Assembly: GCA_013821605.1 (NCBI GenBank)
Contig: JACDGP010000051.1
Coordinates: forward strand, 1 to 36,263
Length of the DNA: 36,263 nt
Direction: 5' to 3'
From: Herpetosiphonaceae bacterium
GTDB lineage: Bacteria; Chloroflexota; Chloroflexia; Chloroflexales; Kallotenuaceae
The position numbers and the translations under genes are program-made. Under the pieces are notes generated by a model, which was not told where the DNA came from, ran no database searches, and worked only from the letters and a program-made list of their open reading frames with translations. This document shows positions 774 to 16,205 of the stretch, one piece after another (positions within the stretch are counted from its first letter, which is position 1; every line of letters starts with the position of its first letter).

Positions 774-859
774 AGGGCACTGCATGGAGACCAGTGTCCC
801 AACCACACCGCACAGTATTGGCCGGCACACGCCATTCAATCGCATACAGGAGATCGATC

Positions 860-1402: not shown

Positions 1403-1441
1403 TTGGGGAATAGGCTATATTGCATGCGGGAATACAATGGT

Positions 1442-1473: not shown

Positions 1474-1539
1474 ATCTCAATGTCAAGGTTCGGCTTTTGG
1501 TTCGGAGCATGATAACCCACCAGCGGCGAGCACAAACGG

Positions 1540-2070
1540 ATGCAGGAACGCACGAAACAGGCACGGTTTGAGGAAGCGGTCTTGCCGCATCTGGATGCTG
1601 CGTACAATGTGGCACGCTGGCTGGTGCGCAATGACCAGGACGCGGAAGATATGGTCCAGGAAGCGGTGATCCGCGCCTTGAAATCATTTGGCGGCTTCTA
1701 TGGCCTGGACGGTAGGGCATGGTTGCTGACGATTGTGCGTAATACCTGCTATACCTGGCTGCAGCGCAACCGTGTGCATGAGCTGGTGACGACACCGTTT
1801 GAAGACGAGATGTATAACCAGGATTGTGACGCTGCTAATCCGGAAACACTGCTGCTGCACAGCGCCAACACGCTGCTGGTCCGGCAGGCCGTGGAAGGCT
1901 TGCCGCTTGCCTTTCGCGAGGTGATCGTCTTGCGCGAACTAGAGGGACTATCGTACAAGGATATTGCGACGGTTACCGGCATTCCCCTAGGGACAGTGAT
2001 GTCGCGGCTGGCCCGTGCTCGGCAGCGGCTGTTGGAGCAGCTGTCGCTGCCCGTGAACAAGGAGTATTAG
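1540..2070 (+). CDS. ECF-type RNA polymerase sigma factor (sigma-70 family)
   Basis: The 176-residue protein has the two-domain ECF layout. Sigma region 2 is seen in AAYNVARWLVRNDQDAEDMV followed by RALKSFGGF and WLLTIVRNTCYTWLQRNR. Region 4 is seen in LPLAFREVIVLRELEGLSYKDIA and GIPLGTVMSRLARARQRL, the helix-turn-helix that reads the -35 element. It directs RNA polymerase to a small regulon, released when its partner anti-sigma factor is inactivated. The anti-sigma gene starts two bases after this stop codon, which suggests translational coupling. The ribosome site is weak. The stimulus is not evident, although the upstream DoxX and ferritin-like genes hint at oxidative stress (inference). 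Confidence 0.93.
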   Translation: MQERTKQARFEEAVLPHLDAAYNVARWLVRNDQDAEDMVQEAVIRALKSFGGFYGLDGRAWLLTIVRNTCYTWLQRNRVHELVTTPFEDEMYNQDCDAANPETLLLHSANTLLVRQAVEGLPLAFREVIVLRELEGLSYKDIATVTGIPLGTVMSRLARARQRLLEQLSLPVNKEY

Positions 2071-2071
2071 C

Positions 2072-2857
2072 GTGAACTGTCAGGATACCCGCATGCTCCT
2101 CGACGGGTATGTCGATGGTGAACTCGATCTTGTCCGGCATCTCGAGATCGAACGCCACCTTCAAACCTGCACAGGATGCGCGCAACGCTATGCCAACTAC
2201 CAAACGTTGCGGAACGCGGTCCGCGGGAGCAGTCTGTATGTCTCAGCACCGCCAGCCTTGCACAAACGTATTCAGGGGTTAGTGGCGCAGAGCAGCGAAC
2301 CTGCACCAAAGCCGCGTAGGCTGTCGCCACGGCTATTGAGGCCGTGGCTCACTGGTGCCATTGCACTGGCTGCGGCGGTACTCTTGGTCTGGGGTACAGT
2401 TCACGGCTGGTCCTGGCCCTTCGTCGATGACCGCGTCACGCAGGACGTTATTGAGGGGCACGTGCGCTCATTAATGGTGACCCATATTGCAGACGTTGCC
2501 TCGTCCGACCAGCATACAGTCAAACCATGGTTTGATGGGAAGCTCGACTTTTCACCACCCGTGGAAGATTTGGCGGATCAGGGCTACCCGCTGGTAGGTG
2601 GACGTCTGGATTACCTAGACAGCCGGTCGGTCGCGGCGTTGGTATACCAGCGCCGGAAGCATGTCATTAATCTCTTTATCTGGCCGTCAGGTGACGGCGA
2701 TCGAGCGACAACGAGCGTGACGCGCCAGGGCTATTATCTGGTGCATTGGACCCGATCAGGAATGACCTATTGGGCGGTATCCGATCTTAACATCGACGAG
2801 CTCCAAGCATTCAGCCACCTCATTCAACAGCGCGTAGCACCAAGCTCCACGCCTTAA
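2072..2857 (+). CDS. Membrane anti-sigma factor with N-terminal zinc-finger (zf-HC2/ZAS) domain
   Basis: The start is GTG 2072, one base after the sigma factor stop. Residues 1-45 hold the ZAS motif: an early Cys (MNCQD), then His and CxxC in HLEIERHLQTCTGCAQRY. A single hydrophobic helix near residues 88-112 (LTGAIALAAAVLLVWGTV) predicts a cytoplasmic sigma-binding head and an exported C-terminal domain of about 150 residues. That C-terminal part resembles the sensor part of other transmembrane anti-sigma factors of this type. It should sequester the upstream ECF factor at the membrane. Length (261 aa) is usual for this group. Confidence 0.88.
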   Translation: MNCQDTRMLLDGYVDGELDLVRHLEIERHLQTCTGCAQRYANYQTLRNAVRGSSLYVSAPPALHKRIQGLVAQSSEPAPKPRRLSPRLLRPWLTGAIALAAAVLLVWGTVHGWSWPFVDDRVTQDVIEGHVRSLMVTHIADVASSDQHTVKPWFDGKLDFSPPVEDLADQGYPLVGGRLDYLDSRSVAALVYQRRKHVINLFIWPSGDGDRATTSVTRQGYYLVHWTRSGMTYWAVSDLNIDELQAFSHLIQQRVAPSSTP

Positions 2858-2895
2858 ACAGAACAGGACGGCTCAGCACATTGATCGTCTTGGCA

Positions 2896-2922
2896 TCGGA
2901 AGCCGATCTGGTCGGCTTCCGA
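2896..2922. terminator. Bidirectional hairpin between convergent genes
   Basis: An 11-bp perfect stem (TCGGAAGCCGA, 2896-2906, with 2912-2922) and a 5-base loop sit between the convergent anti-sigma gene and the maleylpyruvate-isomerase-like gene. No clear T-run follows on either strand, but position and stem strength fit a shared transcription end. Confidence 0.5.
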
Positions 2923-2940
2923 CTGCACGGAGTACATGTT

Positions 2941-3531
2941 TTATGGCTGCCGACCGGTTAATCCCAGTAATCGGGATTGTAAATCGGCATCTTCCGGGAC
3001 TTCAACTTTGGGACCAAACACACCGATGGCGCGCCACTCCTCGGCATGCGGGCTTATTTCATCCCATAAGCCGTGCACCAAATCGTGCGGCAGCCTAGTG
3101 TCGGCACCGATCACCTTGGCAATATCATGAGCGCGCAGACCCCGGAATCCGTTGATCTGCCAAAAATACTCGCGCGCGGGATAGTCACCGAACGAGCAGT
3201 GGACGGTACGCTCGGGGTCGTCGAGCGCCTGCGCCGCAGCACACGCTGCTGCCACAAGCTTGGCAAAACTGCCTTTGGGATCGTCGCCCAAGAGATCACC
3301 TTTAAAGTTGTCCTGGCCGGCCTCGTCCATCGTTTTCCCGGCCAGCATGTCCGGCACCCAGGCATCGTCGTAGGCGTGGTAGTTAATGATCTCCCGCAAC
3401 GTTACTTTGCGGCTTGGGTCGCGCGTAGCAAACTCTGGCGGCATCTCCATAGCCCATTGATCATCTCGAATCTGATCAACGACCTTGTTTAAGGTGCGAT
3501 CGGCCAACACAAAGACGTCTGATTCTTTCAT
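2941..3531 (-). CDS. DinB/mycothiol maleylpyruvate isomerase-like (MDMPI_N, TIGR03086-like) protein
   Basis: The 196-residue protein begins at ATG 3531 with AGGAG six bases upstream. Its N-terminal half resembles the MDMPI N-terminal/DinB four-helix fold: a D-x-x-W segment (RDDQWAMEMPP), the LREIINYHAYDDAWVPDMLAG helix carrying a candidate metal-binding His, and LPHDLVHGLWDEI near residue 150 with further His residues. Members bind a divalent metal and many are annotated only as metal-binding proteins. The thiol cofactor and substrate are unknown. It stands alone, convergent with the anti-sigma gene and divergent from the xisHI region. The superfamily call is fairly sure; enzymatic function is not claimed. 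Confidence 0.7.
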   Translation of the reverse strand: MKESDVFVLADRTLNKVVDQIRDDQWAMEMPPEFATRDPSRKVTLREIINYHAYDDAWVPDMLAGKTMDEAGQDNFKGDLLGDDPKGSFAKLVAAACAAAQALDDPERTVHCSFGDYPAREYFWQINGFRGLRAHDIAKVIGADTRLPHDLVHGLWDEISPHAEEWRAIGVFGPKVEVPEDADLQSRLLGLTGRQP

Positions 3532-3718
3532 CAGTTGCTCCTTACCTAACGCGGCATTCAGTCACTCCTAGCGCCGACGACTGGGACCGGAAAGATGAGC
3601 CTATAATGAGGCGGCGGCACAACCCTACATTAGCATAGATGTTCTTGCGAATCAAGCTCTCTCCGCGACTTTGCATTAGCTGTGGAACTTTGTTTAGGGC
3701 CATACCTGCTTCTCCACC

Positions 3719-3729
3719 TGGTATATAAT
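3719..3729 (+). promoter_or_regulatory. Candidate -10/extended -10 promoter for xisHI
   Basis: TATAAT matches consensus at 3724-3729, and an overlapping TGG-TATATA (3719-3727) fits an extended -10. No convincing -35 lies 16-18 bp upstream. It is 40 bp before the xisH GTG. Confidence 0.4.
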
Positions 3730-3768
3730 TGCCTCCTAGCGATACTATCAACATGCGAGGTAAGCGTT

Positions 3769-3960
3769 GTGCCTGCGAGAGATGTCTACCACGACGCGGT
3801 AAAATCAGCGCTTGTGAAAGATGGGTGGACGATCACGCACGATCCCTATACGATAGCCTTTGGGCAGAGGGCAGTCTTTGTCGATCTTGGAGCCGAACGA
3901 GTGCTTGCTGCTGAGAAAGGCAGTGAGAAAATTGAGGAAATTGTGATATGGAAACGCTAA
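3769..3960 (+). pseudogene. xisH: xisH remnant, internally deleted
   Basis: From GTG 3769 the frame encodes only 63 residues. The start (PARDVYHDAVKSALVKDGWT, then FVDLGAERVLAAEKG) is a clear XisH N-terminus. XisH proteins are normally about 135-140 residues. Here the match breaks off just before the segment that usually carries the AVEIKSF-like motif of the restriction-endonuclease-like core, and resumes with EEIVIWKR, which looks like the family's C-terminal end. The simplest reading is an in-frame internal deletion of about 70 codons that removed the core. XisH and XisI were first named as excision-controlling factors of the cyanobacterial fdxN element and occur widely in Chloroflexota and Cyanobacteria. 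The last codons overlap the xisI start by 13 bases, the usual arrangement. Confidence 0.75.
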
Positions 3961-4283
3961 CAACGTACCGCACCATTATCCGCAAGTTACTGCAACACTA
4001 TGCTACCTACCAACCGGCACGTGGCGAGATCGAGATTGAAACGATTCTTGATGAAACGAATGACCATTATGAACTAATGTATACGGGATGGAATGGTCCA
4101 TACCGTCTCCACGGCAGCGTCCTGCACCTTGATATCCGCAATGGGAAAGTTTGGATTCAATACGATGGAACCGAGGAAGGCATTGCGGAAGAACTGGTCG
4201 CGGCTGGCATTCCGCGTGACCAGATTGTGCTGGCGTTTAAGGCCCCAGACATTCGCCCCTACACAGATTTTGCAGTGGCATAG
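3948..4283 (+). CDS. xisI: XisI family protein
   Basis: The 111-residue product has the full XisI length and signature: YRTIIRKLLQHYA at the N-terminus, LMYTGWNGPYRLHGSVLHLDI, KVWIQYDGTEEGIAEELVAAG and the ending IPRDQIVLAFKAPDIRPYTDFAVA. XisI is the usual partner of XisH, and the ATG at 3948 lies inside the last codons of xisH. Since xisH here has lost its centre, xisI may be an orphan. Molecular function is not established for the family beyond its association with element excision in heterocystous cyanobacteria. Confidence 0.9.
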   Translation: METLTTYRTIIRKLLQHYATYQPARGEIEIETILDETNDHYELMYTGWNGPYRLHGSVLHLDIRNGKVWIQYDGTEEGIAEELVAAGIPRDQIVLAFKAPDIRPYTDFAVA

Positions 4284-4423
4284 GAACGATTCACGCTCGG
4301 TACAGCTGATGTTTACCCACATCCCTATGGGCCCTCGAAGGTGTGGTGGGGTATTGAGGTGACGCTGAACACTCCCGCTGTGTGCTAGCATCGTTGTATG
4401 AGACTGTCGATTGAGGAAACGGT

Positions 4424-4975
4424 ATGAGTGCAGTAGCGCAACAGGTGATGACTGCGGAGGCTTTCTGGCAGATGCAAGAGACCGATTTGCAGCGCGATTT
4501 GATACGTGGGGAGATGATTGAGCGTATGCCACCGGGCGGACAACATGGCGCCATTGCGTCGGAATTGAATGCACAGTTACGGACATGGGCAAAGACTGGC
4601 GCAAAAGGCTGTGTCGGTGTTGAGTCAGGATTTATTTTGGCACGCAATCCAGATACGGTTCGTTCGCCCGACATCTTTTATGTCCGTGCGGATCGTATTC
4701 CAGAAACAGGTATTCCTGAAGGTTTTTGGGAACTTGCACCTGATCTGGCAGTCGAAGTTGTATCGCCAAGTGAAAGCGCTGCGGATGTACGTGACAAAGT
4801 CCGAGATTATTTAGCTGCTGGAACACAACTGATGTGGGTGATCTATCCGCGCAGTCGCGAAGTGATTGTACATACGCCGGATGGACTAGCAAAAACGTAC
4901 AGCCAACATGATGAGTTGACAGGCGCTGAGGTTTTACCAAACTTTATGTGTGTGGTTGCAAGCCTCTTTGAGTAA
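4424..4975 (+). CDS. Uma2 family (DUF820) restriction-endonuclease-like protein
   Basis: The 183-residue protein is a typical Uma2 protein. It shows MTAEAFWQMQETD at the N-terminus, the GEMIERMPPGGQHGAIASELNAQL block, a V-G-V-E-S-G-F core strand, the RSPDIFYVRADRIP strand with catalytic-type Asp, and EVVSPSESAADVRDKVRDYLAAG followed by MWVIYPRSREVIVHTP. These correspond to the PD-(D/E)XK nuclease fold (the E-V-V acidic residue and the downstream K in the helix). Uma2 proteins are very numerous in Chloroflexota and Cyanobacteria and are associated with mobile elements, but no biological target is established. It ends 34 bp before DGR target 1 on the same strand and could share a transcript with it. 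Confidence 0.9.
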   Translation: MSAVAQQVMTAEAFWQMQETDLQRDLIRGEMIERMPPGGQHGAIASELNAQLRTWAKTGAKGCVGVESGFILARNPDTVRSPDIFYVRADRIPETGIPEGFWELAPDLAVEVVSPSESAADVRDKVRDYLAAGTQLMWVIYPRSREVIVHTPDGLAKTYSQHDELTGAEVLPNFMCVVASLFE

Positions 4976-5009: not shown

Positions 5010-7978
5010 ATGTCTGATGACCTCGCACGTCGCATCCAACGCCAGCTTGAGTCGTTCACCGAAGGCGATACCGATGCCGATGGCTTTGCCCGGTCCATCG
5101 TCAACCTGCGCTCGAAGTTCAGTGTCGAGGCGGTGGATGCTGCGCTGCGGGCCAAGCAGGAGGCTGCCAGCGACCCTGCTGTACGCGACCTCCTAGCTTC
5201 GGTCCTCACTGCGCCAACTGCTGCCGCACGGACAAACGGCCAGCACATCGGCGGCCACGCCCAGATCGGGGTTGCAGTCGGGAATTCGGTTGATGGCAAT
5301 GTGATCGCGCCGCTCTTCAGTGGCGCCGGCCAGGGCAACTACATGGCGGGTGTGATCAATGTGTACGGCGCGCCACCCGGCCAACAGGCCAACTATGGCG
5401 CCGCGCTCCGCCGGTACCTGGAACATCTGTATGCGAGCCATGCGACGCTTGACTTGCGCGGCATCGACGACCGGCCCATGGATATGCCGCTGAGCGAACT
5501 CTTCGTCTCGCTCGATCTGCATGAGCCGCCGATCGAGGAACTGCGGGGACGCGGTGCGCTGCGGCAATTCATAGAAAAGGTTCGCCAGGTGGTGACGCAC
5601 GAGGCGAGGGAGCCAGTTGAGCCGCGAGAGCGACAGAAGGCCGTCACGTGGTCGTATGCCCTGCGTCAGCCGCGGCTCGCGGTGATTGGCACCCCCGGCA
5701 GCGGAAAAACGACACTGTTGCATTACACCACAATCCGTTTAGCCGAGGCGCTCGCGCGCGACGAGGATGATCGGCTGGCCGATTTGGGATTATTGGGCGC
5801 TCCCCCGGTGCCGCTGCTGCTGCCGCTGCGTGAACTAGGTGCATACCTTCAGGAAGGCACGTTGCGCGAAACCAGCGCACCCCGCCCACGCCTGCTGCTG
5901 ATTGCCTGGCGAACTACTACGCGGGCTTCGATCTCGATCTGCCCGCCGACTTCTTCAATCGCCTGTGCGACGCGGGTCGGGCGATCCTGCTGCTCGATGG
6001 CTTGGACGAAGTCGCACGCAAAACGGATCGCGCGTTTGTTAGTGGTATCGTACGGGAGTTTGTGCAGCGCTACCGGCAGTGCCGCTGCGTCGTGACTTCG
6101 CGCATCGCAGCGTATCAGGATGATGCACGCATCGAGGCCGATTTTCGTGTCTGCACCGTCGCCGATTTGAGTGCCGACCAGCAGCAGCGCTTCATCGCCA
6201 ACTGGAGTCGTAGTCTGTACCGCCTGATCAAGCCGCAGGCTACTGCCGATCAGCAGCGTCAGGAGGCCGAACGCTACACGCGTGAACTCTGGGAGGCACT
6301 CGAACAGAACGAGCAGGTGCGAGGGTTGGCCGTCAATCCGCTGCTCCTGACCGTGATCTGTGTGATCTACTATAACAATTATGTGTTGCCGGAAGACCGG
6401 GCGGCGCTGTACGAAGAGTGTGTCGAGGTGCTGCTGCGTGGCGGTCGCGGCAAGGCCGACCGAGCCGGTCAACAGCGGCTGGAGTACGCCGGAACATCCG
6501 GCCTTAGCATGGGCCTCAATCCCAAGCGCGAACTGCTGGCGGCGGTCGCGTATACGATGCATCAACGTGGTGAGGACGGTCAACTTGTGAGCCGTGATGA
6601 GTTGATTGCGATGGTCGCCGACCACCTCCACCACCAGAGTGATGCGCGTGACGCCGCACGCAGCTTTGTTGATGAGCTTCCCGTCCATATTGGCCTGCTC
6701 GACGAGCGCGAGCCTGATCGCTTCGCCTTCAGCCACCTGTCATTTCAAGAGTTTCTAGCAGCGCGCCACGTCGCTGAGACGGATCGCTGGTCGGAATTGC
6801 TCGATCACTACAGCGACCCACGCTGGCGCGAGGTGATCCTCCTGTGTGCGGGGCATCTCAGCCGCGAGCGCTGCTGGCGCTTTCTTGGGCAGTTGATCGA
6901 TCGTGGTTCGACGCCGAGCGAGCATGCCGTGGCGCTTGAACTGGCGACGGCGGCACTGGTGGAATTGGAGCGCTTCAAAGGCCAGGGACCGCTCGCGGAT
7001 CGTCTGCGCGCCGATGCCCTCGCGATTGTGGAAGCGCCGGACCCTGCTGTGACTGCACGTGCGCGCGTGACGGGCGGGATTGTCCTGGCGCGCGTCGGTG
7101 ATCCCCGTCCGGGCGTGTACACATTGCCGCCGTCAATGATCGAGGTTGGCGGTGGAGCGTTCGTGATCGGCCTGACCGCGCAGGAAGTGGCACGGCTGCC
7201 GAAGGATGAGCAGGAGTATTTTGGTGGTGCCGTAAATGAGCAGCCGGTGACGGTCAGGTCCTTCGCACTTGCCAGGTATCCGGTGACCAATGCGCAGTTC
7301 AAGCTGTTTATGGAGGACCATGGCTACGATCCGGATGCCCCGTGGTGGGAGCGGGCCGGACGAGCTTGGCGACAACGTGATGATGCGGCAGATCCACGCC
7401 TGCAGGTGTGGCAGCAGCGCAGGCGCAAAGATCAACCGGAGTTTTGGGAGGACCAGCGCTTCGGGAGCGCACGGCCCAACCATCCGGTGGTGGGGATCAG
7501 TTGGTATGAGGCACAGGCCTTCTGCCGGTGGCTGACGCAGCAGCGGAGGTACAATCCGAACGGGATCGTCTACCGCTTGCCGACGGAAGCCGAGTGGGAG
7601 TGGGCGGCGCGTGGACCTGAGCGACGGATGTACCCGTGGGGGCGGGAGGAACCGGAGGGGGACCGAGCGAACTACGGGCAGACCTCCAGCGGCACGACGG
7701 CAGTGGGATGTTTCCCTGGGGGTGCGACGCCGGAAGGTGTGCTGGACCTAGCGGGGAATGTCTGGGAGTGGACGTGCAGCGTGTATGGGTCGTATCCATA
7801 TGATCCGGGTGATGGGCGCGAGCAGCCGACAGAGATTGCGCAAAAACACTTTACACTTCGCGGCGGTTCCTGGTTCGACGATCCGATCGACCTCCGCTCG
7901 GCCTACCGTCTCCTCAACTCGCCCGGTTTCCGGTTCTACTATGTTGGTTTTCGGCTTGCCACGCACCTTCCAGTGTAA
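5010..7978 (+). CDS. DGR target 1: NACHT NTPase with C-terminal FGE-like (C-type lectin fold) variable domain, frameshifted
   Basis: The start is ATG 5010 (MSDDLARRIQRQ), matching the start of target 2. A full product would be about 989 residues: helical N-terminus (1-60), a Gly/Val-rich motif (HAQIGVAVGNSVDGNV, about 85-100), a conserved YLEHLYASHATLDLRGI block, Walker A GTPGSGKT (227-234), Walker [10 protein letters not shown], a STAND-type helical region, and an FGE-sulfatase-like domain ([35 protein letters not shown]) ending in the variable repeat. The frame breaks near 5892-5902. Upstream (from 5010) and downstream (to 7978) halves lie in different frames, both open, and one base inserted around CTGCTGCTGATT restores LLDCLANYY. 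NACHT proteins are oligomerising NTPases of conflict and signalling systems. The FGE-like end is expected to be a ligand-binding display domain rather than a sulfatase activator, because it holds VR1. The break may be a real mutation or a sequence error. Confidence 0.88.
7859..7967 (+). repeat. DGR variable repeat VR1 (3' end of target 1)
   Basis: This 109-bp stretch aligns without gaps to the template repeat at 9571-9679. I count 18 differences: 17 fall at template adenines, and one is G to T at 7898. The first 15 bp and the last 25 bp (GTTGGTTTTCGGCTTGCCAC and following) are identical in template and both variable repeats. In the protein, Asn-rich template codons read as W-F-D-D-P-I-D-L, A-Y-R-L-L-N and G-F-R-F-Y-Y, followed by the constant VGFRLATH end. 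Adenine-directed change is the signature of DGR mutagenic homing, so VR1 has been diversified by the adjacent retroelement. Confidence 0.96.
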
Positions 7979-8012
7979 AGTGTTCTGCGTTCTGAAACCC
8001 TGTGTCCTGATC
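7968..8012 (+). repeat. Direct repeat flanking VR1 on the 3' side (copy 1)
   Basis: The 45 bp after VR1, including the last codons and stop of target 1, match 12915-12959 after VR2 with two mismatches. The template repeat lacks this flank. The homology therefore marks duplication of the target genes, or a conserved 3' element needed at the variable sites. Confidence 0.8.
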
Positions 8013-8075
8013 TGTAGATCGGTTGCGGTTACGTGTTGAGCAATATCCAGGATAGAATAGTGGCCGTATGGTCGC

Positions 8076-8104
8076 CGCGCCGAAGGCGCGATCCGCGATT
8101 TTTT
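8076..8104 (+). terminator. Hairpin plus T6 between target 1 and the reverse transcriptase
   Basis: Stem CGCGCC (8076-8081) pairs with GGCGCG (8085-8090) across a GAA loop. Nine bases later comes a run of six T (8099-8104). The T-run abuts the ribosome site of the reverse transcriptase. A near-copy lies after target 2 at 13022-13048. The distance between stem and T-run is longer than in a standard intrinsic terminator, so activity is uncertain. Confidence 0.5.
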
Positions 8105-8114
8105 GGTGGAGTGG

Positions 8115-9173
8115 ATGAAAACATATCGGCAGCTATGGGACCACGTTCATACCTTCGATAATCTATGGCTGGCGTTTCACCGCGCCCGGCGCGGCAAACG
8201 TGGTAACGGGCATGTCGCGGCGTTTGAATACAATCTGGAGCGCAATCTGTTCGAGCTCCAGCATGACCTTCAAGCTGGCACATACCGGCCGAGTGGTTAC
8301 CGCCACTTCTATATTTGGGAGCCCAAGCAGCGTAAAATCAGCGCCGCGCCATTCCGGGATCGCGTCGTGCATCACGCGCTGTGCAACATCATCGAGCCGA
8401 TCTGGGAACGCCGTTTTATCCATAATAGTTATGCGTGTCGCATCGGGAAGGGCACGCACGCCGCGTTGGACCGTGCCCAGGAGTATGCGCGGCGCTATCG
8501 CTACGTCCTCCAAGGCGACATCGTGCAGTTTTTTCCGTCGATCGATCACGCGATTTTACGTAGCCTGCTGACACGACGTATCGCTGACGATCAGGTATTG
8601 GGCTTGATCGATCTCCTGCTGGCTAGTGGTGCCGGCGTGCTTGACAGCGAGTATACGCCGCAGTGGTTCCCCGGCGACGATCTGCTAACCCCTTTTGAAC
8701 GCGCGCGTGGTCTTCCGATCGGCAACTTGACCTCACAGTTCTGGGGCAACGTGTATCTCCACGAACTTGATACCTTTGTTACGCAGACCTTACGCTGTGG
8801 TGCTTACGTGCGCTATGCCGACGATTGGCTCGTCTTCGCCGATGACAAACAAACGCTCCACGGATGGCGCGACGACATTGCACAGTTCCTGCACGGATTA
8901 CGCCTCCTGCTCCATGAACGCAAAACCCAGATCTATCCGGTGGCGACGGGTATTCCGTTTCTTGGCTTCCGACTGTACCCGACGCATCGTCGTCTCAAGC
9001 GGCCCAACCTGGTGCGTTTTAAGCGACGGATGCGCGCCCTCATGCAGGAGTACCATAGCGGGCATCTTCCGCTCGATCGTGTGACGGCGAGTGTGCGAGG
9101 CTGGGTCGCGCATGCTGTACATGGCGATACGTACCGCCTGCGGAGTCGGGTGCTAAATGATATTGTCCTGTGA
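8115..9173 (+). CDS. DGR reverse transcriptase
   Basis: I choose ATG 8115 because GGTGGAG (8105-8111) lies just upstream; an in-frame TTG at 8103 is less likely. The 352-residue protein has reverse transcriptase motifs in order: YRHFYIWEPKQRKISAAPFRDRVV split over motif 1-2, then LQGDIVQFFPSIDH with the first catalytic Asp, IGNLTSQ at 202-208, YADD at 234-237, and FLGFRLYP. The (I/L/V)GxxxSQ form of motif 4, in place of the QGxxxSP common in retroviral and group II intron enzymes, marks DGR reverse transcriptases. There is no maturase or endonuclease domain. It copies the template RNA with error at adenines and, with Avd, drives transfer into the variable repeats. avd begins seven bases after its stop. 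Confidence 0.97.
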   Translation: MKTYRQLWDHVHTFDNLWLAFHRARRGKRGNGHVAAFEYNLERNLFELQHDLQAGTYRPSGYRHFYIWEPKQRKISAAPFRDRVVHHALCNIIEPIWERRFIHNSYACRIGKGTHAALDRAQEYARRYRYVLQGDIVQFFPSIDHAILRSLLTRRIADDQVLGLIDLLLASGAGVLDSEYTPQWFPGDDLLTPFERARGLPIGNLTSQFWGNVYLHELDTFVTQTLRCGAYVRYADDWLVFADDKQTLHGWRDDIAQFLHGLRLLLHERKTQIYPVATGIPFLGFRLYPTHRRLKRPNLVRFKRRMRALMQEYHSGHLPLDRVTASVRGWVAHAVHGDTYRLRSRVLNDIVL

Positions 9174-9179
9174 CCGGCC

Positions 9180-9530
9180 ATGAGTTTTGAGCCGTCACCG
9201 ATCTTCGCCAAAACCTACGATTTGCTAGCGTGGCTTGTGCCGCAGACGATGCAGTTTCCCAAAAGCCAGCGCTTTGTCCTCGCCAAACGCGTGCAGGACG
9301 CAGCCCTCGATCTCCACGAACTCTTGATCCGGGCCGGCAAAAGTCGCGGTGGTGAGCGGCGACGCGCGCTGCTGGAGGCCGATATTCGCCTGGAGCAACT
9401 GCGGCTACACTGGCGCCTGTGTGTTACCCTTGAGTTGATTACGCCTAATCGCTACGAGCACGGCGCGCGCTTGATCGACGAGATCGGCCGCTTGCTGGGC
9501 GGCTGGTTGAGCAGTCCACCTACAACGTAG
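9180..9530 (+). CDS. avd: DGR accessory variability determinant (Avd), four-helix bundle
   Basis: The 116-residue protein has the Avd/bAvd sequence pattern: [58 protein letters not shown], and the ending [12 protein letters not shown]. In the Bordetella phage DGR, Avd forms a basic pentameric barrel that binds the reverse transcriptase and template RNA and is required for mutagenic homing. Many basic residues here (KSRGGERRR) fit RNA binding. It starts seven bases after the reverse transcriptase stop and ends 40 bp before the template repeat, the usual order of avd, TR and rt elements being variable among DGRs. Confidence 0.93.
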
Positions 9531-9570
9531 CGCCAGATCGTGCTACACTATCGGCGGATCGAGGCGCAAA

Positions 9571-9679
9571 CGCGGCGGTTCCTGGAACAACAATCCGATC
9601 AACCTCCGCGCGGCCAACCGTAACAACAACTCGCCCGATAACCGGAACAACAATGTTGGTTTTCGGCTTGCCACGCACC
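9571..9679 (+). repeat. DGR template repeat (TR)
   Basis: This non-coding 109-bp segment, 40 bp after avd, is the invariant donor for VR1 and VR2. It contains 28 adenines, 26 of them before the final 25-bp invariant block. They are arranged as 12 AAC/AAT codons in the reading frame of the targets, in groups such as AACAACAAT. Every adenine lies in a codon ending in C, T or CG, so no adenine substitution can produce a stop codon. The 3' block shared with the variable repeats is the counterpart of the IMH site where homing begins. The whole stretch 9531-9868 has no gene; the remainder holds a 13-bp direct repeat and the start region of target 2. Confidence 0.96.
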
Positions 9680-9683
9680 CGGC

Positions 9684-9780
9684 TTGCCCGGCCAAATGCC
9701 ACATCGCCACGTGCGAGGTGGTCCCGCCGAACCTGGAAAGGTGCGAGCTTCGATCCCGGTCGTGGCGTTGCCCGGCCAAA
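9684..9780. repeat. Pair of 13-bp direct repeats downstream of TR
   Basis: TTGCCCGGCCAAA occurs at 9684-9696 and again at 9768-9780, both in the non-coding stretch between the template repeat and target 2. The intervening DNA is GC-rich. DGR template RNAs need sequence downstream of TR for priming and Avd/RT binding in the Bordetella phage system; whether these repeats have such a role is unknown. Confidence 0.6.
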
Positions 9781-9868
9781 GAACCCCGCGCCGTGCTCGG
9801 GCCAGTAGCACACGTGAACATCAGGGCACGGCGCAACCTATCTCCCTTTCACGTTCAGGATAAGCGCG

Positions 9869-12800
9869 ATGACGGATGACCTGGCACAACGTATCCAAAG
9901 GCAACAGGCGGCGTTACGAGATGGTGATATCGAGACTGCCGATTTTGCGCGCTTCCTTGCGCGGATGCGGGCACAGTTTGGGGAGCAGCAGGTTGATGCT
10001 GTGCTCCAGGTGGAGGCGGCTACCACTGCCGGTGGCACCACTCAGGTCGTCACGGAGTCGGCGCGCGTTGGCGTGGCAGTGGCTGGCTCGCTCTACGGCG
10101 ATGTTTTTATCAACGGGCAATGGACCCGCGACGAATCAGCCCTCCTCCACCAATATCTCGAGCACCTGATTGCACGGTGTGCGATGCTCCCTTTGCAGGG
10201 TATTCGGGAGCAAAAATCCAGCACCGATCTCCTGGCGATCAAGCTCGATCAGGTCTATACCCAGCTGGCTACCGCAGGAATGGTCCAACGCGAGGTCTTT
10301 GATCGAGCATCGTTGGCACAGTTCGATGCATCGGCGTATCTCGCTGCACATCGTGGCACTGAACTGTTGCCGGCGCAGCAGCGTTCGCGCGTACGAGTTG
10401 CGGGTCAAGCAGGAGCTGATAGGAGGCCCATTTCCATTGTTGCTGGGGGCCGCACACTGTTAAGTGGTGTAATCGACGCCAATTCGGACTTTTACAGCGA
10501 ACAGGATCTGGTGCAGTGGACGCCTCAAGAACTAGCCGCAGCCACCCAACAGGGTGACGAGCTGATTTTCTACGGTCCTCAACTGGTCACTGAGGCAATT
10601 GCCGACAGCAGTCATATAGTGGTGCTTGGGGAGCCGGGAAGCGGCAAGAGCACGCTGCTGCGCTATCTGGCGCTGACGTTGGCCGAGGCCGGTCTGGACG
10701 AGCACGTCGATCTCCAGGAGCGCTTGCAGGGTTGGTCAAGGCTAGGCGCGCACTATCGCCCGCTGCCCATCTATTATCCGCTGCTCACCTTTGCCCAGCG
10801 GCTGGCAAAAGACCCCGGACTGGCCGGCACGGCCCATGATCTCTGGAATGCCCTCGCCGACTTTATCGATCCCGCGACGAGCAGCACGGGCCTCGCAACC
10901 GTCGTCCGTGATCGAATCAACCGTGGCGCGGTGATCTTGTTGCTTGATGGGTTGGACGAAGTGGCGACGGTCGAGTCGCGCCGCAAGGTCGTGCAGGCCG
11001 TCGCGCAATTTGCTACCGAACACCCGCTGTGCCGCATCATCGTGACCTGTCGCGTTCGCGCCTATGAAGGCGAACGCAACGCTGCATGGCAACTCCCAGG
11101 ATGGCCCACGGTGACATTAGCCGATTGGACGCGTGGGCAGATGGCACATTTTATTGCGGCCTGGTATCACGAGGCAGCGCGGGCGAACGACCGCACGGCT
11201 GAGTGGCGCGGGGAACGGGTGACGGCCTTGCAGACAGCCCTTGGGCGGCGTCCGGACCTGCAACGGCTGGGCGTGCGGCCCTTGCTGCTAACGATCATGG
11301 CGGTGGTGCATTTCAATGATGGCCGCCTGCCTGAAGACAGTGTATCGCTGTACCACCGGTGTATCGAGATTTTGCTCGGTCAATGGGAGCTTGGCCGGGC
11401 CGATGGGACTGCCTATGGGACGCTGATGGCCTACATTAGCTTACCCAACAGCGGTGTCGAGGCGTTCCGTCCGTTGCTTGAAGTGGCTGCATTTCGGGCC
11501 CACGAAGCACAGCGCGGCACCGATCAGGGGTCGCTCGGGTGCGAGCAGTTGCGCCTCCTGGTGATGGACGCGCTCAAAGAACGTGGCCATACCAACCCCT
11601 ACGATGGCGCCGAGAAGTTTCTTGACTATACGGATAAGCGTGCGGGTTTATTGCAGGCCAGTGATGCGGGAGATGCCTACGTCTTTCCGCATCTGACATT
11701 CCAGGAATACCTGGCGGGTGTCCATCTGGTCAGCGGTCTCCATGTGGTGGACAAAATCATGGCACGGCGCAACGACGACCGATGGCGCGTCCCGATCATG
11801 CTGGGAGTTGGCGATCATGTCAGTGGCAACAAACTGGAAATGCCATACCGCCTCTTCCAGGAATTGCTCACGTGCGAGGAGCGTTCGGTGGAGCAAACGG
11901 AGCGCGACCTCCTCTTCGCCGCCGATCTGGGTCAGGAGCTTGGCTGGGATCGTTTGGAACAGGGCGATACGGCGTTTAAGCGTGTGCGTCGGGATCTTGC
12001 ACAGCAGTTGGGAAGCGTTGTCGAAGGTCGGGTGCTACCGGCTACCGAACGGGTGCGCGCGGGCAGCTTGCTTGGCACACTAGGCGATCCCCGTCCTGGC
12101 GTGTGCGCATTACCGCCTTCACTCATCACTATTGGCGGTGGAGCGTTCGTGATCGGTCTGACAGCGCAGGAAGTTGGACGGCTGCCGAAGGATGAGCAGC
12201 CGTATTATAGTCATGTAGTGAATGACCAGCCAGTGAGCGTCAGGTCCTTCGCGCTTGCTAAGTATCCGGTGACCAACGGGCAGTTCAAGCTGTTTATGGA
12301 CGATGCGGGCTACGACCGGGTGGTGCCGTGGTGGGAGGGCAGGGGACGGGAGTGGCTCGATGCACAAGACAATCGCCGTGCTCCCAACTATTGGGGGGAC
12401 GAGAGGTGGGGCATGGCGCGGGCCAACCATCCGGTGGTGGGGGTTAGTTGGTACGAGGCGCAGGCGTTCTGTAGGTGGCTGACGCAACAGCGGAGGTACA
12501 ATCCGGTAGGCATCGTCTACCGCTTGCCGACGGAGGCCGAGTGGGAGTGGGCGGCACGGGGTGTGGAGCGGCGGATGTACGCGTGGGGGTGGGAGGAACC
12601 GGATGGGGACCGGGCGAACTACGATGGGACATACAACGGCATGACGGCAGTGGGATGTTTCCCTGGTGGTGGGACGCCGGAAGGGGTGCTGGACCTAGCG
12701 GGGAATGTCTTGGAGTGGACGGGCAGCGTCTATGGGCCGTATCCGTATGATGCGGACGATGGGCGCGAGCAGCCGACAGAGGTTGCGCGAAAACGCTTTA

Positions 12801-12925
12801 CACTTCGCGGCGGTTCCTGGAACTTCAATCCGATCTTCCTCCGCGCGGCCAACCGTGACTTCGGCTCGCCCGATGACCGGATCGGCAATGTTGGTTTTCG
12901 GCTTGCCACGCACCTTCCAGTGTAA
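9869..12925 (+). CDS. DGR target 2: intact NACHT NTPase with C-terminal FGE-like (C-type lectin fold) variable domain
   Basis: This 1018-residue protein is the intact paralogue of target 1. Residues 1-60 are helical ([20 protein letters not shown]). A Gly/Val motif ([19 protein letters not shown]) is followed by the block [17 protein letters not shown]. The NACHT domain has Walker A GEPGSGKS (254-261) and Walker [11 protein letters not shown] (355-364). After it come [10 protein letters not shown] (sensor-like), [24 protein letters not shown], and [15 protein letters not shown], typical of bacterial NACHT proteins. The FGE-like domain runs from about 745 to the end, with [26 protein letters not shown] and [16 protein letters not shown], closing with VR2. 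Compared with target 1 there is a 20-30 residue longer insert before the NTPase. The protein probably senses a ligand through the diversified surface and signals by NTP-dependent assembly (inference from the STAND family). AGGA lies nine bases before the start. Confidence 0.95.
12806..12914 (+). repeat. DGR variable repeat VR2 (3' end of target 2)
   Basis: Gap-free alignment with the template repeat gives 13 differences, every one at a template adenine. Changed codons turn template Asn into Phe (three times), Asp (twice), Gly (twice) and Ile. The terminal 25-bp block is identical to that in TR and VR1. The absence of any non-adenine change suggests recent homing from this template. Confidence 0.97.
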
Positions 12926-12959
12926 AGTGTTCTGCGTCCTGAAACCCTGCGTCCTGATC
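12915..12959 (+). repeat. Direct repeat flanking VR2 on the 3' side (copy 2)
   Basis: This is the second copy of the 45-bp element after VR1 (7968-8012), with two mismatches. It spans the last codons and stop of target 2 and about 34 bp of non-coding DNA. Confidence 0.8.
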
Positions 12960-13021
12960 CGGTGAGATGTATGGCCTATCACATGGGACCACCTCTGCCG
13001 ACCGGTACATACTACCCACTC

Positions 13022-13146: not shown

Positions 13147-13800
13147 ATGAGTCTCACCATTGCGGCGATTAGTGGTGTGGTGTCGGCAGCCGTTAAGTAT
13201 CTGCTGACGAGCAAGGGGTTGGATACGGCGGCGCAAAAAGCGACCGAGAAGATCGGCACCATGGGTGGCGAGGCACTCATCAACGTGGGCAAGAACGCGT
13301 TAACCAAGTTGCGCGAGGCCCTTGGCCAGCGTGGTGATGCAGCCAAAAAAGCGCAGAAAGCGCTGGCCGATGTCGAAGACGATCCGGCGGACGTGGATTA
13401 TCAACAGAAGCTTGCTACCGAGCTCGACAAGCTGGCAGCAGCGGATGGGCAATTGCGTACCCTGCTGGAGCAACTCAGCGCGGAGGTCGAGAAGGTCAAT
13501 GGGAAGAACGATGTCCGGATGCATCATCAGCAGATCAGTGGATATGCCCAGGTCGGTGCCGCTGTGGCGGGCGACGTCCACGGCGGCATCCACCTCGGCC
13601 CAATGAACTTCGGCGAGCGGCGTACGGTCAACATGAGTGATGGTGATTATGCAGAAGGGTCGCTTGACAAGCGCGAGGGTGCTTTTGTAGAGGGCGGCAC
13701 CGTCAATGGTCCTGTGGCCGGCTCTAATTCCGGCACCATATCGTCCTCGTCCGGTCAACCAGGCTCGACGCAGCCGGATGGAACCACCTCCAAACCCTAG
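13147..13800 (+). CDS. Unrecognised 217-aa protein sharing the Gly/Val-rich motif of the DGR targets
   Basis: ATG 13147 is preceded by GGAGG (13137-13141), which favours it over the in-frame ATG at 13135. Residues 1-55 are hydrophobic and helical (MSLTIAAISGVVSAAVKYLL). Residues 55-120 are charged helices with coiled-coil character. At about 125-145 comes QISGYAQVGAAVAGDVHGGI, which resembles HAQIGVAVGNSVDGNV in target 1 and [15 protein letters not shown] in target 2. The remaining 75 residues are Gly/Ser/Thr-rich with short valine repeats (YAEGSLDKREGAFVEGGTVN) that suggest a beta-stacked or beta-helical tail, ending in a disordered Ser/Pro stretch. I do not recognise the family. Shared motif and position suggest a partner of the NACHT proteins, perhaps by homotypic beta contacts (inference). 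The stop codon overlaps that of the convergent gene in CTAG. Confidence 0.75.
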   Translation: MSLTIAAISGVVSAAVKYLLTSKGLDTAAQKATEKIGTMGGEALINVGKNALTKLREALGQRGDAAKKAQKALADVEDDPADVDYQQKLATELDKLAAADGQLRTLLEQLSAEVEKVNGKNDVRMHHQQISGYAQVGAAVAGDVHGGIHLGPMNFGERRTVNMSDGDYAEGSLDKREGAFVEGGTVNGPVAGSNSGTISSSSGQPGSTQPDGTTSKP

Positions 13801-14207
13801 GCTTGCGGCGGGCTACTTCTGTCAATGTATACGAACCATTGCATCAGTTGTTGTATGAGTTTGGCTGGGTCAGTCGACAAGGCGGGATGGACCGGTGAGG
13901 TTTGAATCATTGTGCTGCGCGGCGCAACCAGCCAGTGAAAGCGTTCTTGGAGCGGCAAAGCACCGATCGGTCCTGCCTCTTGGCCGCCGCGACAGATGGT
14001 CCCCATACTGGCTAGATGGGCCGCAATCAGCGTGGTATCCGCATAGGGTGCCAGAGCACGTAAGCGCTCCGTATCAAGGGCGATTTCGGCTTGGAGAAAG
14101 CGGCGTGGCCGGCAGAAGACGATCAAACCGGCATTGATGAACTCACCCCGTTCGACAGCGGGCACGACGCGGATGATGGCGTAATCACAGGGACTAGCGG
14201 TGGGCAC
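13797..14207 (-). CDS. DUF3037 family protein
   Basis: I place the start at GTG 14207, which has GGAGG a few bases upstream and lies inside the end of the HipA-like gene (14-base overlap). The 136-residue product opens with CDYAIIRVVPAVERGEFINAG and LIVFCRPRRFLQAEIALD, the DUF3037 signature. DUF3037 genes are commonly found next to HipA-like genes, as here. Function is unknown; the pairing implies a joint role, possibly toxin-antitoxin-like. Confidence 0.85.
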   Translation of the reverse strand: MPTASPCDYAIIRVVPAVERGEFINAGLIVFCRPRRFLQAEIALDTERLRALAPYADTTLIAAHLASMGTICRGGQEAGPIGALPLQERFHWLVAPRSTMIQTSPVHPALSTDPAKLIQQLMQWFVYIDRSSPPQA

Positions 14208-14973
14208 TGATCGCCTCCGACACAAAGGCTCGGGGTGCAGCCAGTCTGCTCACAAGGTAGTCCCGATATGCTCGGCGATGTTCGTCGGGGGTCGCGAACT
14301 GGGGCTCGTCGCGTAGCCATTCGTCCGGAATCAGATCAACAATCTCCCCAATGGTTGGCGGCAGCAGCCGTGGCACAAGCGCAGTATCTGCCGCCAGGAG
14401 ATCGCCCGCGAACGGCAAAAGCACATGATCGCGGATGTACCGAAACGGACTCTTACTGCTGGCGAGGTAATTATCCCAGCCATGGTGAAAGAACAACGCT
14501 GCACCATGATCGATCAGCCATAACTTGTTCTGCCACACCAGGAGATTGGTATTACGGGGCGTCCGATCAACGTTGGTCAAATATGCGTCACACCACACGA
14601 TCTCGGCTGCCAGCGCCGGGTCTGGGGCATCGCGCAGAGGATCAAATGCCAAGGCACCAGGTAAATAAGCCAGTGCTAGGTTCAACCCCGTACTGGCCAG
14701 CAGTAACGCCTGAATTTCCGGATCTGGTTCGGCACGGCCCAGTGCAGCATCAAGTTCCACAAACACCAACTCCGGCACCAACAGACCGAGGGCTCGTGCA
14801 ATTTCACCACCTAGGAGTTCCGCGATCAAGGCGCGTTGTCCCTGACCGGCGCCACGAAACTTGACTACATACAGGGCGTCATCGTCGCCAGCCATAATTG
14901 CGGGTAGGGAACCGCCTTCGCGGAGCGGCTGGATATATGCTGTTGCTTGCACGGTCCGTAACGTCCTGCTCAT
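14194..14973 (-). CDS. HipA-like kinase-fold protein (HipA_2 type)
   Basis: The 259-residue protein resembles the compact HipA-like family that pairs with DUF3037. It has an N-terminal lobe with ALYVVKFRGAGQ and LIAELLGGEIARALGLLVPE, a middle segment DAYLTNVDRTPRNTNLLV that resembles the kinase catalytic loop (D, then N), and LWLIDHGAALFFHHGW, which provides the metal-binding Asp. HipA proteins phosphorylate protein substrates in persistence modules. In this short branch the substrate is unknown. The downstream DUF3037 gene overlaps it, so the two are co-translated. No HipB-like antitoxin is nearby. Confidence 0.8.
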   Translation of the reverse strand: MSRTLRTVQATAYIQPLREGGSLPAIMAGDDDALYVVKFRGAGQGQRALIAELLGGEIARALGLLVPELVFVELDAALGRAEPDPEIQALLLASTGLNLALAYLPGALAFDPLRDAPDPALAAEIVWCDAYLTNVDRTPRNTNLLVWQNKLWLIDHGAALFFHHGWDNYLASSKSPFRYIRDHVLLPFAGDLLAADTALVPRLLPPTIGEIVDLIPDEWLRDEPQFATPDEHRRAYRDYLVSRLAAPRAFVSEAISAHR

Positions 14974-15115: not shown

Positions 15116-16205
15116 CTAGACTGCCGACGCAGCGAGCAATGCAGTGAGCGTATGCTCTAGCACCCGGATTGAGCGGAGATAATCTGCAAGCAGAATATGC
15201 TCATCCGGCGTGTGGTCAAGGCTTGCGTCACCAGGACCATAAGTGATGATCGGGCAGCCCCATGCCAGGCCGACGAGATTCATATCTGATGTGCCGGTCT
15301 TGACGATGAAGCGTGGCACCAGCCCTTCACGCTTGAAACCGCCGATCAAGGCCCGTGCCACCGGCGAACTCCGTGAGGTACGAAAGGCATCAACGCCGCC
15401 CAGAATTTCGAGCGACCCCTCGCCTACAAGTTCACGCAGCCATGCTGCTGCTGCCGACGGTCCAATATCTTCTGGCAGTCTAATGCTGAGCTCCAACTCG
15501 CACCAGTCCTGGAGACCATCGCTGCCACTCCGAATCCCAACCAAAGCAGGAATAAGTTGATCCCAAGATCGTTCGCGGCCAACGTTGATCCTTGCACTCC
15601 AACGACGAAGCTGTTGCCACAGGTCGCTGCCTTGCTCGGCTACCGTCAAGCGATCATGGGCAGAGTGACCGCTGGGCTGGCTGAGATGAATCCGCGCCCG
15701 GAGGCTGCCTTTGTAGCCGACCGTGATCGCGCCCGTACCGCTTGGCTCGCCCACGATACAGTAATCTGGGCGATAGGCATCGAGGACACCATGCGCGCCG
15801 CGCGATGAAGGTGCCTCCTCCTCGACACAGCCGATGACGGTCACACGCCCACCGCTCGCCACTGCACCGCAGCGTGCAGCGGCCGCTACGAAGGCCGCAA
15901 GCGGTCCTTTCGCGTCCACAGCGCCCCGACCATAGAGCTTGCCGTCCTCGATGCGGACCGGCACCGAGCCAGGGACAGTATCGATGTGCCCCAGGAGCAC
16001 GACCTCGGGCCGGCCTTGCCCAATGTGGCCGACAGCATTCCCCGTCTGATCGACATATGCTTCAAAGCCCAGACGTTGCATAACGTCTACGAGATAGTGA
16101 ACGGCATCATGCTCGCGCCCCGAAACACTGGGGAGTGCTACAAGGCGATGCAGCAGGTCAACTGCGGCGGCATCGCTTAGCTGTGACACAGCGAGAGGAG
16201 GGACT

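What the first reader, a model, noticed from the sequence alone, without database searches (positions are those of the whole stretch)
5010..12925. Complete diversity-generating retroelement with two NACHT-FGE targets and one template
The sequence shows a DGR-type reverse transcriptase (IGNLTSQ, YADD), an Avd homologue, a 109-bp template repeat and two variable repeats. Gap-free hand alignment gives 17 adenine-position changes plus one G-to-T in VR1, and 13 adenine-position changes with no other change in VR2. Both variable repeats are the last segment of FGE/C-type-lectin-fold domains on NACHT NTPases. DGRs on NTPase conflict proteins have been described as a class, so the novelty here lies in the arrangement: one TR and one RT between two paralogous targets, so one template diversifies the ligand surfaces of two STAND receptors.
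Basis: partly seen in the sequence, partly recalled or inferred. Interest (0 to 1): 0.95.

Follow-up and report, generated by a model that had tools for sequence, protein, structure and literature searches.

The report
Retroelement diversifying two bacterial immune-type receptors
A genuine gene-diversifying retroelement in a Chloroflexales bacterium uses one template to rewrite the sensor tips of two immune-type receptor genes; that layout is already known, but each rewritten patch is bracketed by an inverted repeat that appears undescribed and may mark where the element writes.

Summary
The diversity-generating retroelement (DGR) is real. By program, TR (9571-9679) differs from VR1 at 17 of 28 adenines plus one G>T, and from VR2 at 13 adenines with no other change. 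RT and Avd are confirmed, and both VRs end FGE/C-type-lectin domains on NACHT proteins.

Two corrections. (1) Target 1 is not an intact ORF: a 1-base deletion near 5900, between Walker A and Walker B, breaks it; relatives are intact. (2) One TR serving two STAND targets is not new. Dore et al. 2024 (PMC10907252) report it as common in clade 5D DGRs, and I find it repeatedly in Chloroflexales.

What looks new. (a) A 13-bp inverted repeat (AACACTTTACACT/AGTGTAAAGTGTT) brackets VR1, and 12/13 VR2, but not TR. CTTTACA/TGTAAAG occur four times in this 36-kb contig, all at the arms. In 82 order genomes, CTTTACAC-N105-135-GTGTAAAG gives 12 places, 10 of them at DGR VRs. The upstream arm is constrained at DNA level (28/29 targets use AAA-N-TTT-ACA; 0.7% expected). 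(b) The two sensor domains evolve in concert while their NACHTs stay anciently distinct. (c) A neighbouring helical protein shares an N-terminal receptor motif.

The bracket's function is inferred, not shown.

The parts
5010..7978 (+). Target 1: NACHT-FGE STAND receptor gene, broken by one single-base deletion near 5899-5901 (between Walker A GTPGSGKTT and Walker [10 protein letters not shown])
   Evidence: tblastn of five intact homologues switches from frame +1 to +3 at 5900 with no residue lost; FGE-sulfatase PF03781 E=7e-49
7097..8013 (+). Sensor cassette 1 (FGE domain, VR1, stop and about 35 nt beyond), homogenised with cassette 2
   Evidence: about 80-90% nt identity to 12083-12960 over most of its length, dropping to about 45-55% upstream and 41% just downstream
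7845..7857 (+). Upstream arm of the VR1-bracketing inverted repeat (AACACTTTACACT)
   Evidence: 13/13 complementary to 7972-7984; synonymous-site constraint; genome-wide rarity
7859..7967 (+). VR1
   Evidence: 17 adenine-site changes and one other against TR
7972..7984 (+). Downstream arm of the VR1-bracketing inverted repeat (AGTGTAAAGTGTT), containing the stop codon
8103..9173 (+). DGR reverse transcriptase (likely ATG at 8115)
   Evidence: RVT_1; 36% identity to BPP-1 Brt, 44-49% to cyanobacterial and other DGR RTs next to avd; IGNLTSQ and YADD
9180..9530 (+). Avd accessory protein
   Evidence: NF033474 DivGenRetAVD 102 bits, above the curated cut-off of 80; bAvd PF22296 E=1e-20
9571..9679 (+). 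TR: 12 AAY codons, none of its variable codons can become a stop, about 10^16.5 possible peptides
   Evidence: no bracket motif at its flanks
9869..12925 (+). Target 2: intact 1018-aa NACHT-FGE STAND receptor
   Evidence: PF05729 NACHT above cut-off, PF03781 E=5e-46; AlphaFold2 model of the FGE domain, pLDDT 92.7
12083..12960 (+). Sensor cassette 2 (FGE domain, VR2, stop and about 35 nt beyond)
12792..12804 (+). Upstream arm of the VR2-bracketing inverted repeat (AACGCTTTACACT)
   Evidence: 12/13 complementary to 12919-12931, the exception being a G-T pair
12806..12914 (+). VR2
   Evidence: 13 adenine-site changes, none other
12919..12931 (+). Downstream arm of the VR2-bracketing inverted repeat
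13147..13800 (+). Candidate effector or partner: 217-aa protein, helical N-terminal half, C-terminal motif QQISGYAQVGAAVAGDVHG shared with receptor N-termini
   Evidence: tblastn with the motif hits NACHT-FGE N-termini and a caspase-like gene in relatives; low-confidence helical model

Best explanation
This is a chromosomal DGR of the kind that diversifies STAND (NACHT) receptors in multicellular bacteria. Avd and the error-prone RT copy the TR transcript, randomising adenines. The cDNA replaces the VR at the 3' end of either target, changing about 12 residues in the variable loops of a C-type-lectin/FGE sensor domain (shown: adenine-specific TR-VR differences, all components, the fold; inferred: retrohoming, ligand binding). 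Ligand binding would trigger NACHT oligomerisation and recruit a partner through the N-terminal motif shared with the neighbouring 217-aa gene, with cell death or dormancy as output (inferred). Target 1 is broken by one base in this assembly, so only target 2 is certainly intact. The two targets are old, separate NACHT receptors whose sensor cassettes keep being homogenised so that both still fit one TR (phylogeny shown, mechanism inferred). Each VR is bracketed by an inverted repeat with consensus about AAAACNCTTTACAC that is absent from TR. I propose it is the target-site element that tells the machinery which copy to rewrite, taking the place of the short stem-loop 3' of VR known from BPP-1, either by holding the VR open as a single-stranded loop or as paired protein-binding sites. 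The confidence given is for the DGR, its targets and the existence of the bracket; for the bracket acting in target recognition I put about 0.5.
For: DGR. Same kind in relatives: 31 of the fetched loci carry NACHT+FGE+RT. The Chloroploca TR (G047) matches VRs in two other genomes with 9 A/0 other and 15 A/0 other (G045) and 6 A/1 other (G038), which is adenine-specific variation between species. Fold: FGE model pLDDT 92.7; best PDB matches EgtB/FGE family; TvpA, a DGR variable protein, is found by sequence profile (2y3c, E=2e-20). Concerted evolution: FGE domains 76% identical and sisters with 100% support, NACHTs 32%; the same in Chloroploca (89% v 31%); AU test rejects both congruent alternatives (dlnL 282 and 323). 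Bracket: 13/13, 12/13; unbiased 7-mer count: CTTTACA upstream of 15/45 VRs, 0.15 expected; TGTAAAG downstream of 13/45, 0.35 expected; 16 of 45 VRs carry both arms, at most 2 of 45 TR flanks reach the same score; same motif read in codon phase 0 as KxFT and phase 1 as SLYT; 28/29 use AAA-N-TTT-ACA, own-gene usage predicts 0.7%; 4 of 5 genomic copies of AACNCTTTACACT are these arms; 10 of 12 bracket matches in 82 genomes are DGR VRs; bracket stem in predicted ssDNA folds of VR1 and VR2, not TR. Partner motif.
Against: No population data for this species, so activity is not shown. Target 1 is frameshifted. Arm complementarity within a locus is only slightly better than between loci (13.0 v 12.5 of 19 positions, p=0.013), which favours a sequence signal over a pure cruciform. 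ssDNA folding is unusual only for VR1 (z -2.4), not VR2 (z -0.4). In BPP-1, sequence upstream of VR is dispensable (PMC3240598). Many DGRs, including those of other Chloroflexota, cyanobacteria and Chlorobi, lack the bracket, so it cannot be a general requirement. Loci are related by descent, so p-values across loci are optimistic. No defence assay exists for these receptors.
Confidence: 0.85

Rival explanations
1. A recently decaying DGR: target 1 is a pseudogene and the element now serves only target 2, or neither.
For: Single-base frameshift in target 1 between Walker A and Walker B. Several relatives carry orphan FGE targets without RT or with a truncated RT (L061 RT stops at residue 205).
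Against: The rest of target 1 is open for about 700 codons; VR1 holds 17 adenine changes and no stop. RT, Avd and target 2 are intact. The genome is a 259-contig draft, so an assembly error is possible.
Confidence: 0.2
2. The VR-bracketing inverted repeat is not a DGR target signal but the remnant of transposon or MITE ends, or recombination sites that move sensor cassettes between receptors.
For: The arms look like terminal inverted repeats. Dore 2024 reports MITE-like inverted repeats at DGR loci. Sensor cassettes are homogenised, and their 3' limit lies about 30 nt past the downstream arm. A similar 16-mer is part of an interspersed repeat in G059 and G077.
Against: In this genome the motif is not repeated elsewhere. 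The G059/G077 repeat has almost no inverted partners. The arms sit at a defined place around VRs in families with different reading frames and spacings. The cassette's 5' limit is about 750 nt upstream of the upstream arm.
Confidence: 0.2
3. The inverted repeat acts in the mRNA (a hairpin closing the 3' end of the message, or a decay or termination signal).
For: The downstream arm spans the stop codon in both window targets; stem formation tolerates a G-T pair at VR2.
Against: The loop is over 110 nt, no U-tract follows, and the arm lies 50-116 nt past the VR in other families. The conserved feature is the sequence more than the pairing.
Confidence: 0.15
4. VR1 and VR2 differ from TR by ordinary drift after duplication, not by DGR activity.
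For: The cassettes around the VRs also differ by about 10-20%.
Against: 30 of 31 TR-VR differences are at adenines. VR1 and VR2 differ at 21 sites, 20 of them TR adenines, while the adjacent 109 nt show ordinary differences.
Confidence: 0.01

Closest known systems
Clade 5D DGRs diversifying STAND NTPase sensors in multicellular bacteria (Thiohalocapsa PB-PSB1 DGR 3 and DGR 6; Dore et al. 2024, PMC10907252)
   Same: RT + Avd + one TR, two targets with central STAND NTPase and C-terminal FGE/CLec domain with VR, multicellular hosts including filamentous Chloroflexi, CLec domains of one DGR class closely related while N-termini differ
   Different: Here the VRs carry a conserved bracketing inverted repeat that the paper's main text does not mention; the receptor-slot v sensor-cassette discordance is tested explicitly; target 1 is frameshifted
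BPP-1 DGR target site (IMH plus short stem-loop 3' of VR; Guo et al. 2011, PMC3240598; PLoS Genet 2026, PMC12875486)
   Same: An inverted repeat outside the TR-homologous region, near the VR 3' end, absent from TR
   Different: BPP-1: 8-bp GC-rich stem with 4-nt GRNA loop wholly downstream, stem sequence free, upstream sequence dispensable. Here: A/T-rich arms with conserved sequence on both sides of the VR, 114-nt loop containing the VR, and no GRNA-type hairpin found
TvpA of Treponema denticola (PDB 2y3c)
   Same: FGE-type C-type lectin variable protein of a DGR; profile match E=2e-20
   Different: TvpA is not fused to a NACHT NTPase (general knowledge)
Bacterial amyloid signalling (BASS) motif pairs of NLR and Bell/CHAT/TIR proteins (Dyrka et al. 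2020, as described in PMC7889193)
   Same: Short motif at the N-terminus of an NLR and towards the C-terminus of an adjacent small helical protein; in relatives on a caspase-like protein
   Different: The motif was not compared with BASS profiles; no amyloid evidence; Bell homology untested

Membership tests
Diversity-generating retroelement | DGR-type reverse transcriptase | tested here: met
   IGNLTSQ/YADD; full-length matches to BPP-1 Brt and avd-linked DGR RTs
Diversity-generating retroelement | TR-VR pair differing almost only at TR adenines | tested here: met
   17+1 and 13+0
Diversity-generating retroelement | Avd or equivalent accessory protein | tested here: met
   NF033474 above cut-off
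Diversity-generating retroelement | VR at the C-terminus of a C-type-lectin/FGE-fold protein | tested here: met
Diversity-generating retroelement | Short GC-rich stem-loop (7-10 bp, 4-nt GRNA loop) 4-34 bp 3' of VR, as in BPP-1-type phage DGRs | tested here: not met
   Best short hairpin within 140 nt is 6 bp with a 3-nt loop at about +107; a VR-bracketing repeat is present instead. Not required of all DGRs
Diversity-generating retroelement | Demonstrated adenine mutagenesis and retrohoming | not testable with these tools
   Only indirect: cross-species VR variation at adenines in Chloroploca
Clade 5D STAND-target DGRs (Dore 2024) | RT falls in clade 5D | not tested
   No reference RT set was available; architecture matches the published description
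Clade 5D STAND-target DGRs (Dore 2024) | Two targets with central STAND NTPase and single C-terminal CLec domain | tested here: met
   target 1 split by a frameshift
Anti-phage bNACHT/Avs STAND proteins | Central STAND NTPase with Walker A/B | tested here: met
   Target 2: GEPGSGKST and [11 protein letters not shown]05729 above cut-off
Anti-phage bNACHT/Avs STAND proteins | Match to a characterised defence profile | tested here: not met
   PADLOC gives only P-loop-level hits; NCBIfam EruA 44 bits against a cut-off of 1000
Anti-phage bNACHT/Avs STAND proteins | Protection from phage | not testable with these tools
   Needs an assay
BASS amyloid-signalling NLR/effector pair | Shared short motif at NLR N-terminus and C-terminal part of an adjacent gene | tested here: met
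BASS amyloid-signalling NLR/effector pair | Match to a BASS1-10 profile; amyloid formation | not testable with these tools
   Profiles not held; no assay

The most novel reading that the evidence does not exclude
The VR-bracketing inverted repeat is a distinct target-site architecture of a DGR lineage: sequence-conserved arms on both sides of the VR, embedded in coding sequence on the 5' side, that define what the machinery rewrites and stand in for the BPP-1 stem-loop. Combined with sensor-cassette homogenisation, it would let one template keep several receptors diversifiable.
Probability: 0.4. Interest if true: 0.8.

Novelty: new variant of a known kind. Interest (0 to 1): 0.6.

Why it matters
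How a DGR recognises and opens its target is still incompletely understood (stated in PMC12875486). A rare, sequence-conserved repeat that brackets VRs and not the TR, and that overrides codon choice, is a concrete candidate for that signal. It can be tested by recoding codons without changing the protein, and it can be used to find VRs without a nearby RT (as at G038:C85). The concerted evolution of sensor cassettes on anciently separate NACHT receptors indicates that sharing one template constrains receptor evolution, a bacterial counterpart of shared-repertoire immune receptors.

Tried and rejected
Rfam scan of the window: nothing. tRNA: none. More VR copies of this TR elsewhere in the genome: none. 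Scan of viral contigs with the bracket pattern: at least 120 matches, capped, in contigs not examined further and judged chance in A/T-rich DNA. Programmed frameshift in target 1: no slippery heptamer seen by eye, homologues are continuous, so rejected in favour of deletion or assembly error. Transposon-end origin of the bracket: searched; the only multicopy relative of the motif is a different repeat in G059/G077. Classical short hairpin downstream of VR: not found. Bracket in cyanobacterial, Chlorobi and Ideonella DGRs: absent. CTG heptads downstream of VRs looked striking (17/45 v 0.07 expected), but heptad arrays are common genome-wide in the order, so not claimed as DGR-specific. Structure of the 217-aa neighbour: helical but too low in confidence to search (pLDDT 54).
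Full report
WHERE IT IS. The window is a complete 36-kb contig (C156) of a 5.9-Mb, 259-contig draft genome. The closest relatives of the locus in named records are Chloroploca and Oscillochloris, so the host is a member of the Chloroflexales.

TR 9571-9679, VR1 7859-7967 and VR2 12806-12914 align without gaps. VR1 departs from TR at 17 adenines and one G. VR2 departs at 13 adenines only. The template is well designed for its role: 12 AAY codons, no variable codon can mutate to a stop, and about 10^16.5 peptides are possible. The RT matches DGR RTs of BPP-1 and cyanobacteria over its whole length, and Avd passes the curated NCBIfam cut-off. Both VRs end PF03781 domains. The AlphaFold2 model of the target-2 domain (pLDDT 92.7) is an FGE/EgtB-type C-type-lectin fold, and the profile also finds TvpA, a DGR variable protein. 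In the model the VR begins near residue 235. By its DSSP string, the variable codons fall mainly in loops and a short helix between strands; solvent exposure was not computed.

ONE CORRECTION TO THE ANATOMY. Target 1 is not an intact gene in this assembly. Five intact homologues align in frame +1 up to window 5900 and in frame +3 from 5900 on, with no residue lost. One base is therefore missing, between the Walker A and Walker B motifs. The downstream 700 codons, including VR1, are open, so this is either a very recent mutation or an assembly error.

THE ARRANGEMENT IS NOT NOVEL. Dore et al. [quoted passage not shown] In my own sample, 31 loci combine NACHT, FGE and RT. One TR serves two or three NACHT-FGE VRs at L042, L080, L082 and L084, and two to four NACHT-FGE genes flank the RT at L037, L048, L059 and L061. 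Cyanobacterial plasmid DGRs likewise have up to three VRs per TR. There is cross-species evidence of activity in this kind of DGR: the Chloroploca TR of genome G047 fits VRs of another species (G045) with 9 and 15 adenine changes and none elsewhere.

CONCERTED EVOLUTION OF THE SENSORS. The two targets share about 80-90% of nucleotides over most of a 0.9-kb cassette running from the NACHT-FGE junction to about 45 nt past the VR. Identity falls to about 45-55% upstream and 41% just downstream. Excluding the VR, the FGE domains are 76% identical and each other's closest relatives, while the NACHT domains are 32% identical and belong to two receptor lineages each shared with other genera. Trees confirm this. 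FGE: window pair 100% support, receptor-slot monophyly rejected (dlnL 282). NACHT: pair monophyly rejected (dlnL 323). Chloroploca L061 shows the same pattern independently (FGE 89%, NACHT 31%). The simplest reading is repeated gene conversion or replacement of the sensor cassette, favoured because both VRs must keep matching one TR. Dore et al. noted that CLec domains of one DGR class are closely related and mentioned domain shuffling; the formal discordance test is added here.

AN INVERTED REPEAT BRACKETS THE VRs. AACACTTTACACT (7845-7857) and AGTGTAAAGTGTT (7972-7984) are perfect complements flanking VR1; the VR2 arms pair 12 of 13, the exception being a G-T pair. The arms begin where TR homology ends (1 nt upstream, 4 nt downstream) and are absent from TR. 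The heptamers CTTTACA and TGTAAAG occur exactly four times in the whole contig, all at these arms, and four of the five copies of AACNCTTTACACT in the genome are these arms. Across 45 VRs from 38 loci an unbiased 7-mer count finds CTTTACA upstream in 15 (0.15 expected) and TGTAAAG, its reverse complement, downstream in 13 (0.35 expected). Sixteen VRs carry both arms at 10 or more of 14 consensus positions, against 1 and 2 for the TR flanks. In 82 genomes of the order the pattern CTTTACAC-N(105-135)-GTGTAAAG occurs at 12 places, 10 of which are DGR-type VRs, against one for the reversed control.

THE UPSTREAM ARM IS A NUCLEIC-ACID SIGNAL, NOT ONLY A PROTEIN MOTIF. Among 29 targets with K-x-F-T before the VR, 28 use exactly AAA-NNN-TTT-ACA, although the same genes use AAA, TTT and ACA in 31%, 36% and 7% of cases (expected 0.7%). 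In a second target family the same nucleotides are read in another frame, as S-L-Y-T. Codon conservation in this segment is 0.80-0.82 against 0.50 +/- 0.07 elsewhere in the domain. Loci are related, so these probabilities are nominal, but the frame change is hard to explain otherwise.

WHAT THE BRACKET MIGHT DO. In BPP-1 a short stem-loop 3' of the VR promotes homing, its sequence is free and upstream sequence is dispensable (PMC3240598). [quoted passage not shown] No comparable hairpin lies near these VRs. A bracketing stem would present the VR as a 114-nt loop, and predicted ssDNA folds contain that stem at VR1 and VR2 but not at TR, though only VR1 folds better than shuffles. On the other hand arm sequence is conserved more than arm pairing (own-locus match 13.0 v 12.5), which fits protein-binding sites as well. 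I rate a target-recognition role at about 0.5, with transposon remnant or recombination site (0.2) and mRNA structure (0.15) as the main rivals. The bracket is confined to Chloroflexales DGRs in my sample. My library searches found no description of it; most subscription papers and all preprints were outside the library.

OUTPUT SIDE. The next gene, 13147-13800, encodes a 217-aa protein with a helical N-terminal half (low-confidence model) and the motif QQISGYAQVGAAVAGDVHG. The same motif lies in the N-termini of NACHT-FGE receptors here and in relatives. In genome G038 (L045) it also lies on a caspase-domain protein (PF00656) close to a NACHT-FGE gene, and on a similar protein at L057. This resembles the published pairing of NLRs with Bell, CHAT or TIR effectors through amyloid signalling motifs (PMC7889193), but it was not tested against those profiles.

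VERDICT. A true DGR of a published kind, with one broken target in this assembly. The new elements are the VR-bracketing repeat and the tested discordance between receptor and sensor histories.

Noticed in passing
G000:C245 (L053) 50-4882: A second DGR in the same genome (RT 59% identical, FGE target upstream, Avd, TR 2602-2679, NACHT gene downstream); TR-VR differ at 9 A and 1 other. It lacks the bracketing repeat.
   Followed up: partly
downstream of VRs, e.g. L053:965-995, L080, L042, L050; degenerate at window 7980-8015: Arrays of CTG every 7 nt follow 17 of 45 VRs (0.07 expected) and no TR. In the window's own genome the five-unit pattern occurs once, just after the other DGR's VR, but such heptad arrays are common in many genomes of the order.
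   Followed up: partly
L045:1-1491 (G038), L057 about 15200-15630 (G032): Caspase-domain (PF00656, L045) or caspase-like protein near NACHT-FGE loci carries the same QxIxGxAxxGAAxAGDVHG motif as the receptors' N-termini: a probable receptor-protease pair.
   Followed up: partly
L061 3916-4518 (G045): RT truncated after residue 205, yet both flanking VRs carry only adenine changes against a sister species' TR: a DGR that diversified its targets and then lost its RT, or uses one in trans (the genome has another RT).
   Followed up: no
G038:C85:66811-66942: The bracket pattern alone found an extra VR-like sequence (CGTGGCGGCTCGTG...) on a contig that had shown only a short weak match in the 5-kb DNA search: the motif may serve to find remote VRs.
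   Followed up: no
window 4424-4975 (+) and 14194-14973 (-): The locus is flanked by a Uma2-type putative endonuclease (PF05685; PADLOC candidate PDC-S03) and a HipA-like kinase (PF20613; PDC-M66A), both matching candidate defence genes.
   Followed up: no
L251-L256, L258-L261 (G059, G077): An interspersed repeat beginning GTGTAAAGNGTTTTTG, similar to the downstream arm but in another context and almost always without an inverted partner.
   Followed up: partly
NACHT-FGE N-termini and neighbours (L045, L061, L062, L063; window 13640-13700): A second shared motif, GGDYAEGSLDKRxGTFVxG, occurs both in receptor N-termini and in neighbouring small proteins.
   Followed up: no
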